Assembly: GCF_000385565.1 (NCBI RefSeq)
Contig: NC_021169.1
Span: 496,001-560,000 of the forward strand
From: Archaeoglobus sulfaticallidus PM70-1
Lineage (GTDB): Archaea > Halobacteriota > Archaeoglobi > Archaeoglobales > Archaeoglobaceae
Direction of reading: 5' to 3'
DNA: 64,000 nt
Positions 41,460 through 43,052 of this stretch are shown here, one piece after another. Below the pieces are notes generated by a model. It made no database searches. It was not told where the DNA came from and was given only the letters and a program-made list of their open reading frames with translations. Positions within the stretch are counted from its first letter, which is position 1, and every line of letters begins with the position of its first letter. The position numbers were made by a program, and so were the translations under genes.

Positions 41460-41705
41460 GGGAGAGGTAGTAGTAAGCCCCCTTCTGTTCAAAACGGCAT
41501 TAATCTAAGCGCATACGCTTGCACCAGCGGGGACGGCCGTTTCATCCCGCATGGGTGACCTCTGCATTTGCTTCATCGCATTTCCCCATGCGGGTATCGT
41601 TTCTGTGCCGTTGCCATGCCTCTCGGCATACTCCCTTGCGGGAGTCCGCCTTTTTACGGTGGGGGGACTTTCCTCCTCACGGTCAGCCGTTCACTACCTC
41701 TCCCT
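41460..41705 (-). ncRNA. rnpB: RNase P RNA (archaeal)
   Basis: Read on the minus strand, the ends pair over 11 bp (41694-41704 with 41460-41470, helix P1). Conserved segments are GAGGAAAGTCC (41665-41675), ACAGAAA near 41605 and AGAAGGGGGCTTA (41474-41486), the hallmarks of RNase P RNA. Length of about 246 nt fits archaeal examples. The ribozyme RNA removes tRNA 5' leaders. A promoter sits immediately upstream. Confidence 0.92.
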
Positions 41706-41820: not shown

Positions 41821-42369
41821 ATGCTGATTGACATAATTATACCCTTTATCACAATCGCTCTGGCAGAACTGGGTGATAAGACCCAGCTATCCCTCTTACT
41901 TTTATCAACCAAAACAAAAAAGCGTTTGCAGTTGTTTTTTGGGGCTATGACTGGATTTCTTATCGTTGACGGTTCAGCAATTCTGCTGGGCTCGTGGATA
42001 TCCGAAATCGTTCCAGAGGATTATCTCAAGATTTTTTCGAGCGCCGTATTCATTCTGGCAGGGATTTTTGTGTTGAAGTCTGGAGAGGATGGTGGTGGAA
42101 AGCTGGGGTTTGAGAACCCGGCATTATCTGCTTTCATTCTGATTTTTGCCACTGAGTGGGGAGATAAAACCCAGATAGCCTCTGCATTGTTTGCTACGAG
42201 GTATGATCTTCTGTTTGTTTTCTTTAGCGTTATGCTCGCTTTAGCTGTTCTGTCTATCTTGGCAATATATCTTGGAGAATTGATTTCTGAAAGGCTGGAC
42301 AGGAAAAAGGTTTCAAGGGTGGCAGGGGTTGTTTTCATTGTGATTGGTGTATCATTTGCTTTGGTCTGA
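41821..42369 (+). CDS. TMEM165/GDT1 (UPF0016) family cation transporter
   Basis: A 182-residue membrane protein with six hydrophobic helices and two copies of the family motif: ELGDKTQLSLLLLST at about residue 17 and EWGDKTQIASALFATRY at about residue 117. The E-x-G-D-K-T repeats are the cation-binding sites; relatives transport manganese or calcium against protons. It stands alone after rnpB. Confidence 0.9.
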   Translation: MLIDIIIPFITIALAELGDKTQLSLLLLSTKTKKRLQLFFGAMTGFLIVDGSAILLGSWISEIVPEDYLKIFSSAVFILAGIFVLKSGEDGGGKLGFENPALSAFILIFATEWGDKTQIASALFATRYDLLFVFFSVMLALAVLSILAIYLGELISERLDRKKVSRVAGVVFIVIGVSFALV

Positions 42370-42690
42370 TCGTGGAACTGGAGTTTTTTGAGTTTATAAC
42401 TTCATAGTTGAATACGCTCCATTGTAGCCATGCTCTTGCGGGTTCTTCTTCCTGAACTTAGGTGGGTTTTTAACCCGTTCAGATCACGAGATAACTTCAA
42501 AGATGTTTTTAGTTTCACAGATATTTCCAAGCTTCTGACGCGCTGGATTTGGTTATTTAGTTTTCTAGCTTCTTCCTTTTTCTGATTGTCTATCGAGATT
42601 TACAGAAAGTCGCTAAGAAAGCTCAAGGATTTAACCGTGAGATACACTAGGGTGGGAGGGTGGTTGGTGGAGAATTAAGTTTAATTACCT
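42370..42690. other. Gene-free decayed stretch
   Basis: No credible gene. On the minus strand a lysine/arginine-rich frame (for example SIDNQKKEEARKLNNQIQ, about 42399-42600) is open but has no start codon other than an internal TTG and no ribosome site. It may be a remnant or chance. No TnpB or other transposase motif was found here. Confidence 0.5.
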
Positions 42691-42870
42691 TGCATTCGAA
42701 CTAAATTGAATACCCGTCGTCCGACAGGAGGATGGGGAACGGGGTGCTGGCACACCCCCTTGCTTCTAGGGCAGACGACTGGCTGAAGGGTAAAAACCCG
42801 AATGCAGGCTGGATGGGGATGAGAGCCTTAGAAGCAAGAATTCTCCCGGCTTTAGCCGTGCGGAGTATCA
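42691..42870 (+). mobile_element. Orphan IS200/IS605-type right end with omega-RNA-like structure
   Basis: The sequence folds like the guide-scaffold RNA at the 3' end of tnpB elements. It has an outer stem TGCATTCG/CGAATGCA (42691-42698 with 42799-42806), an inner GTCGTC/GACGAC stem, and a GGGGTG/CACCCC hairpin (42741-42758). A 10-bp long-range pairing CTTGCTTCTA/TAGAAGCAAG (42759-42768 with 42829-42838) forms a pseudoknot. It ends with a CGGC-TTTA-GCCG hairpin flanked by CTCC/GGAG and then TATCAA, a usual IS605 terminus. No tnpA or tnpB is present nearby. The family assignment is from pattern memory. Confidence 0.55.
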
Positions 42871-43052
42871 ACTCGAGAAATTCGATATTTTAAATCTTCA
42901 TATTTTATCGAATGTTGCTATTTTTGAATTCCGTAATGCTTGCATGTTACAGCAATTATTTGCTTTTTCCATCTACAAGCCGACCAAAACAGATGAATCA
43001 CAAAGACCAGCCTATCCTGATGGTTAAAATCAGACTAAGATAGGATTGAAAG
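42871..43052. other. AT-rich intergenic stretch
   Basis: No gene, repeat or clear hairpin was seen between the IS605-like end and the stop codon of the phosphoribosyltransferase gene. Confidence 0.5.

What the first reader, a model, noticed from the sequence alone, without database searches (positions are those of the whole stretch)
42691..42870. Solo IS200/IS605-type omega-RNA without tnpA or tnpB
The element keeps the outer stem, the GGGGTG hairpin, a 10-bp pseudoknot pairing and the terminal hairpin typical of the RNA end of tnpB elements, but no transposase or TnpB remains. The sequence just past the terminal hairpin would be the guide position. A retained RNA without its nuclease could serve a TnpB encoded elsewhere or be a scar.
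Basis: partly seen in the sequence, partly recalled or inferred. Interest (0 to 1): 0.55.

Follow-up and report, generated by a model that had tools for sequence, protein, structure and literature searches.

The report
Miniature transposon carrying solo guide RNA
A 268-base jumping-gene remnant in an archaeon has lost both of its protein genes but keeps its two ends and a well-formed guide RNA, and similar guide-only remnants turn up in several other archaeal genomes.

Summary
Positions 42604-42871 are a miniature IS200/IS605 element with TTAC on its left and TCAA as its last bases, and with IS608-type guide tetranucleotides beside hairpins at both ends. No tnpA or tnpB is left, only a short remnant of the TnpB C-terminus. 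Three more full-length copies (87-92% identical, different flanks) lie in the same genome, so it multiplied as a unit. Its right half is a tnpB omega-RNA: hairpin P1, 13-bp helix P2 and terminal hairpin P3 covary across relatives. The genome holds 10 such RNAs: 7 stand alone, 1 sits beside a tnpB fragment, 2 beside intact tnpB genes. Among 294 phylum genomes, 34 strong hits split into 19 solo (all in 4 genomes), 10 tnpB-linked and 5 at contig edges. The guide joined to its TTAC matches nowhere else in the genome, which argues against a repurposed regulator. No resident TnpA with matching ends was found, so the family may be stuck here. Whether a resident TnpB uses the RNA is untested; trans guide and scar both stay open. 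Elements of this kind (PATEs) are already described.

The parts
42600..42603 (+). TTAC, left cleavage and target site (CL); would be the TAM of the emptied site
   Evidence: Sequence; TTAC in 3 of 4 copies, ATAC in the fourth; IS608 CL is TTAC (passages)
42604..42871 (+). Miniature IS200/IS605 element, 268 bp, four copies in the genome
   Evidence: Copies 92, 89 and 87% identical with different flanks
42618..42621 (+). AAAG, left guide sequence (GL), directly before the left hairpin
   Evidence: IS608 GL is AAAG
42622..42641 (+). Left-end hairpin (IPL); imperfect in this copy, perfect in the copy at 753.6 kb
   Evidence: both-sided changes in relatives
42669..42694 (+). A+T-rich promoter-like stretch before the RNA (function inferred only)
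   Evidence: 26 of 27 alignment columns invariant in the four copies
42689..42698 (+). 5' arm of the outer stem, with 42799-42808; crosses P2
   Evidence: not supported by relatives
42712..42738 (+). Imperfect palindrome, its core inverted between copies
42741..42758 (+). omega-RNA hairpin P1 (in TnpB GVLAHP coding remnant)
   Evidence: Covariation
42760..42772 (+). 5' arm of omega-RNA helix P2
42825..42837 (+). 3' arm of omega-RNA helix P2
42838..42841 (+). GAAT, right guide sequence (GR), directly before the right hairpin
   Evidence: IS608 GR is GAAT
42842..42866 (+). Terminal hairpin P3 (IPR)
42868..42871 (+). TCAA, right cleavage site (CR), end of the element
   Evidence: 4 of 4 copies; IS608 CR is TCAA
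42872..42887 (+). Expected 16-nt guide (flanking DNA)
   Evidence: Position as in ISDra2 reRNA (passages of PMC8612924); no other TTAC+guide match in the genome within 3 mismatches

Best explanation
It is a non-autonomous deletion derivative of an IS200/IS605 transposon with IS608-type ends (PATE/MITE kind). It keeps the left end, a promoter-like stretch, the omega-RNA of a GVLAHP-type TnpB, and the right end. Shown: the ends, four copies, no tnpA or tnpB, homology to tnpB 3' ends, and an omega-RNA fold that covaries across relatives. Inferred: a TnpA encoded elsewhere spread it by binding the two hairpins and cutting at TTAC and TCAA. Inferred with less confidence (about 0.3): a resident TnpB of the 1.77-Mb type loads the RNA and cuts the emptied TTAC+guide site after excision, so that repair restores the copy.
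For: Four full-length copies with shared boundaries. TTAC, AAAG, GAAT and TCAA in IS608 order. 76% identity to a resident tnpB 3' end and 96% over 24 bases to the left end of the same element. Full tnpA+tnpB relatives with similar ends: L044 (88% left, 94% right against the 753.6-kb copy) and L046. Covariation: 94.7% of 584 cells pair, 12 of 28 pairs with double changes against 4.7 in shuffles. Model score 110.3 bits (this sequence is in the training set). Independent miniature elements with an omega-RNA: L045, L194 and L195, L098, L119, L139. P2 is kept in unlinked RNAs as in linked ones (257 of 273 against 110 of 117 cells; alignment fitted to the model), although L100 and L144 show that ends without the 5' arm of P2 also occur as miniature elements.
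Against: For trans use: no expression data; 0 of 78 predicted pairs have a double change among the four copies themselves, so selection on these copies is not shown; P1 is decayed in unlinked RNAs (84 of 126 cells against 53 of 54); the left hairpin is imperfect in 3 of 4 copies. For present mobility: the right ends seen for resident tnpA elements are GTTCAC, not TCAA, and one copy has ATAC instead of TTAC.
Confidence: 0.85

Rival explanations
1. Scar: the omega-RNA part is only what an internal deletion left, partly kept because its 3' side overlaps the right end that TnpA needs. It has no guide function since tnpB was lost.
For: No double changes among the four copies; P1 decay in unlinked RNAs; some miniature elements have only the ends (L100, L144; L170); no matching resident TnpA found.
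Against: The 5' arm of P2 is not part of the right end, yet P2 pairs as well in unlinked as in linked RNAs; 6 of 8 miniature right-end loci score clearly above the right-end-only level. Recent origin could explain both.
Confidence: 0.55
2. A repurposed guide that directs a TnpB-like protein to another locus for regulation or defence.
For: The RNA is kept without its nuclease gene next to it.
Against: TTAC+16 matches nowhere else in the genome within 3 mismatches. Ten exact 16-mer matches in viral contigs, 0 of 10 after TTAC. Only the guide of this copy was tested.
Confidence: 0.04
3. An unrelated structured RNA that only resembles an omega-RNA.
For: A stable fold by itself says little.
Against: Homology to tnpB 3' ends and shared covarying helices; no Rfam match.
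Confidence: 0.01

Closest known systems
PATEs (palindrome-associated transposable elements) of Haloquadratum walsbyi, PMC3119063 (passages read)
   Same: Short elements without transposase genes, derived from IS605-type transposons by core deletion, with near-terminal palindromes; one (HqIRS71) includes part of a C-terminal coding region.
   Different: In the passages read they are not described as carrying a guide RNA; other ends and hosts.
PATE-like element of Halanaerobium hydrogeniformans, PMC7290912 (section 3.8 read)
   Same: About 271 nt: left end, last 58 nt of tnpB and the entire 160-nt right end, so it probably holds an omega-RNA too (inference).
   Different: Bacterial, one copy, not discussed as a guide RNA in the section read.
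IS608, PMC5934647 (passages read)
   Same: CL TTAC, CR TCAA, GL AAAG, GR GAAT, hairpins beside the guides.
   Different: IS608 encodes TnpA and TnpB.
ISDra2 reRNA (omega-RNA), PMC8612924 (passages read)
   Same: RNA from the tnpB 3' end and right end, followed by about 16 nt of flanking DNA as guide.
   Different: There made beside its tnpB; TAM TTGAT; here no tnpB beside it.

Membership tests
Non-autonomous IS200/IS605 element (PATE/MITE) | Target/cleavage and guide tetranucleotides in IS608 order | tested here: met
   TTAC 42600, AAAG 42618, GAAT 42838, TCAA 42868
Non-autonomous IS200/IS605 element (PATE/MITE) | Subterminal hairpin at both ends | tested here: met
   Both present; the left one imperfect in 3 of 4 copies
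Non-autonomous IS200/IS605 element (PATE/MITE) | Several copies with the same boundaries and different flanks | tested here: met
   Four copies
Non-autonomous IS200/IS605 element (PATE/MITE) | No tnpA or tnpB inside | tested here: met
   No frame above 56 aa in it
Non-autonomous IS200/IS605 element (PATE/MITE) | A TnpA with matching ends available in the genome | tested here: inconclusive
   Right ends seen for two of three intact tnpA elements are GTTCAC; the third runs off the contig start, its TnpA is 97% identical to one of these
Non-autonomous IS200/IS605 element (PATE/MITE) | Empty site in a relative | tested here: inconclusive
   No relative aligns on both sides of the element
TnpB omega-RNA (reRNA) | Homologous to the 3' end of tnpB genes | tested here: met
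   76% over 104-113 nt
TnpB omega-RNA (reRNA) | Conserved covarying secondary structure | tested here: met
TnpB omega-RNA (reRNA) | Transcribed, with about 16 nt of flank at its 3' end, and bound by TnpB | not testable with these tools
   No RNA data
Repurposed guide (TldR-like; name recalled) | A guide target elsewhere in the genome | tested here: not met
   Only its own junction within 3 mismatches
Known Rfam RNA family | Covariance model match | tested here: not met

The most novel reading that the evidence does not exclude
Some archaeal genomes carry miniature elements whose only product is a guide RNA. They parasitise both TnpA (to move) and TnpB (to re-cut emptied sites), so that guide RNAs outnumber nuclease genes and one TnpB keeps a whole family of elements.
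Probability: 0.28. Interest if true: 0.65.

Novelty: new member of a known kind. Interest (0 to 1): 0.4.

Why it matters
If solo omega-RNAs are loaded by a TnpB from another locus, TnpB is a shared resource for non-autonomous elements, one nuclease with many guides, which resembles a CRISPR arrangement. This genome gives a testable case: two intact TnpBs of the type and seven solo RNAs, each with its own flank as guide.

Tried and rejected
Rfam gave nothing for the element. The sigma-70 promoter scan found none and does not cover archaea. The empty-site comparison in the genus failed: in 5 relatives no match spans or brackets the element; beside gene matches and CRISPR repeats only a 45-53-base piece (window 42904-42958) matched, in three places of one relative at 83%. 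Guide targets: own genome only its own junction; 10 viral 16-mer matches, 0 of 10 after TTAC. A contiguous-helix test on the right-end loci and a hairpin classifier were too crude; the P1 motif in both was written wrongly, and they were replaced by the covariance model and a stricter left-end finder. The census script misfiled two minus-strand hits of the own genome as contig edges; I reset these two by hand. Active-site distances in the TnpB model were not measured, as no coordinate file is in the box. Early alignments took wrong stretches or strands.

Full report
What is there. The window lies at 496001-560000 of a single-contig genome of 2,076,931 bases. From recall, not from any call, that size is that of Archaeoglobus sulfaticallidus. 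The flagged stretch lies between the convergent ends of two frames (ending at 42369 and 43053). Read with its sister copies it is the right two thirds of a unit from 42604 to 42871, preceded by TTAC. Copies lie at 753.6 kb (92%), 1127.8 kb (89%) and 1627.8 kb (87%), all with different flanks. TTAC stands on the left in 3 of 4 copies (ATAC in the fourth), and TCAA ends 4 of 4.

Ends. The left end has AAAG directly before a hairpin; the right end has GAAT directly before a hairpin and TCAA as its last bases. These are the guide and cleavage sequences of IS608 (passages of PMC5934647). Outside the four copies, the left ends in L044, L045, L046, L048 and L049 are preceded by TTAC in 5 of 5 (the search pattern held TTAC, with up to 6 mismatches allowed). 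The left hairpin changes on both sides in relatives (GGTTTTAACC, GGTTTGAACC, CATTTCAATG), but it is imperfect in 3 of the 4 copies here.

Origin. Bases 138-241 of a query starting at 42601 are 76% identical to the 3' end of a resident 424-aa TnpB gene, and its first 24 bases are 96% identical to the left end of the same element. In relatives similar ends flank tnpA plus tnpB: L044 (Archaeoglobus sp. UBA234 by contig match; left 88%, right 94% against the 753.6-kb copy) and L046. The four copies share one internal structure, so one deletion derivative multiplied. An independent case is L045 (Candidatus Mnemosynella biddleae by contig match): a left end and a tnpA start fused to the end of a tnpB with its RNA. 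Two more, of about 245-255 bp, are L194 and L195 in another genome of the phylum.

The RNA. An alignment of 21 sequences (the 4 copies, tnpB-linked relatives and others) was scored with three helices. Of 584 cells, 94.7% pair, against 44-57% when partners are slid; 12 of 28 pairs have double changes (shuffled mean 4.7; 0 of 500 shuffles reach 12). A covariance model built from it scores 42741-42871 at 110.3 bits (the sequence is in the training set). A second alignment of 30 model hits agrees (93.3% of 800 cells, 15 pairs with double changes), but it is fitted to the model and leans that way. Among the four copies alone, 0 of 78 predicted pairs have a double change, so selection on these copies is not shown.

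How common solo RNAs are. The model finds 10 places in the genome: the four copies, two beside intact tnpB genes, one beside a 129-aa tnpB remnant, and three with only scraps of tnpB and no left end beside them (eight of the ten are in the training set). In 294 phylum genomes it gives 57 hits at E up to 1e-5 in 17 genomes. Of the 34 at 60 bits or more, 19 have no listed PF07282 match within 400 bases upstream on the same strand, 10 have one, and 5 lie at contig edges (the PF07282 listing was cut at its weak end, and two misfiled hits were reset by hand). All 19 come from 4 genomes (7, 5, 4 and 3). I fetched the 12 of these outside the own genome plus one at 59 bits; 7 of the 13 have a left end within 650 bases by a loose rule, and most carry short tnpB scraps. 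In a separate scan, the right-end sequence was found at 72 loci, some cut short by contig ends and some from the same genomes as above. By a stricter rule, 8 of 72 have a left end within 650 bases, against 2 of 360 shuffled windows, and 6 have one at 1.2-1.7 kb. Six of the 8 score 51-102 bits with the model; two (L100, L144) score about 40 at that place, the level of a right end alone. In the aligned set, P2 pairs in 257 of 273 cells of 21 unlinked RNAs (19 solos, one at 59 bits, one at a contig edge) and in 110 of 117 cells of 9 linked ones; P3 in 169 of 189 and 73 of 81; P1 in only 84 of 126 against 53 of 54. P1 lies in TnpB coding sequence, so its decay may reflect loss of coding constraint, loss of RNA function, or both.

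Possible partners. The resident TnpB matches the RNA-guided TnpB family (NF040570, 177.7 bits, cut-off 100). Its RuvC-II glutamate is a glycine in 16 of 16 family members aligned, while another glutamate (E334 here) is invariant in the same 16. Of five other resident TnpBs, two with glycine also have this glutamate, and three with the usual glutamate have P, P or A there. This looks like a moved catalytic residue rather than a dead enzyme (inference). The AlphaFold model of a homologue (L143; pLDDT 76.8, pTM 0.52) matches Cas12f and TnpB structures, but distances were not measured. Three intact TnpAs and one broken are in the genome. The right ends seen for two of the three intact ones are GTTCAC; the third runs off the contig start, its TnpA being 97% identical to one of these. 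A TnpA for TTAC/TCAA ends was thus not found, and the copies may be stuck here.

Guide. The 16 bases after TCAA, joined to TTAC, match nowhere else in the genome within three mismatches except the element's own junction. This fits a guide for the emptied site and gives no second target. The guides of the other copies were not searched.

Verdict. It belongs to the known PATE kind: PMC3119063 passages and PMC7290912 section 3.8, the latter a single bacterial case that probably also holds the RNA. The listings showed no paper titled on solo omega-RNAs in archaeal miniature elements, and passages of PMC12558985 did not mention them. The two papers I most wanted were not held, and from recall one of them mentions PATEs, so I make no claim of priority.

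Noticed in passing
window 43023-43052: A single CRISPR-type repeat of 30 bases, 90% identical to repeats spaced about 66-70 bases at 1.138-1.142 Mb of the same genome; only one copy in the window within 3 mismatches.
   Followed up: partly
L003 2685-2915 (G000 about 1.129 Mb): Four repeats of the same CRISPR type stand about 1 kb from the copy of the element at 1127.8 kb.
   Followed up: no
window 42712-42738: The core of an imperfect palindrome is inverted between copies: the reverse complement of the 1627.8-kb copy is found exactly in this copy, as if a hairpin had flipped.
   Followed up: partly
L049 1045-2319 (-) and relatives: The TnpB family has glycine for the RuvC-II glutamate and an invariant glutamate elsewhere, in 16 of 16 aligned.
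   Followed up: partly
window 42904-42958: A piece of the right flank matches three contigs of one same-genus genome at 83%; it may be another repeat.
   Followed up: no
L168 (G000 446 kb): A solo RNA without its own left end, with a 24-base left-end match on the opposite strand about 360 bases downstream.
   Followed up: no
L170 (viral contig IMGVR_UViG_3300005265_000857): A left-end hairpin and a right end within about 150 bases and no tnpA/tnpB match in the 3 kb before.
   Followed up: no
window 41462-41702 (-): Archaeal RNase P RNA, 200 bits; ordinary.
   Followed up: no
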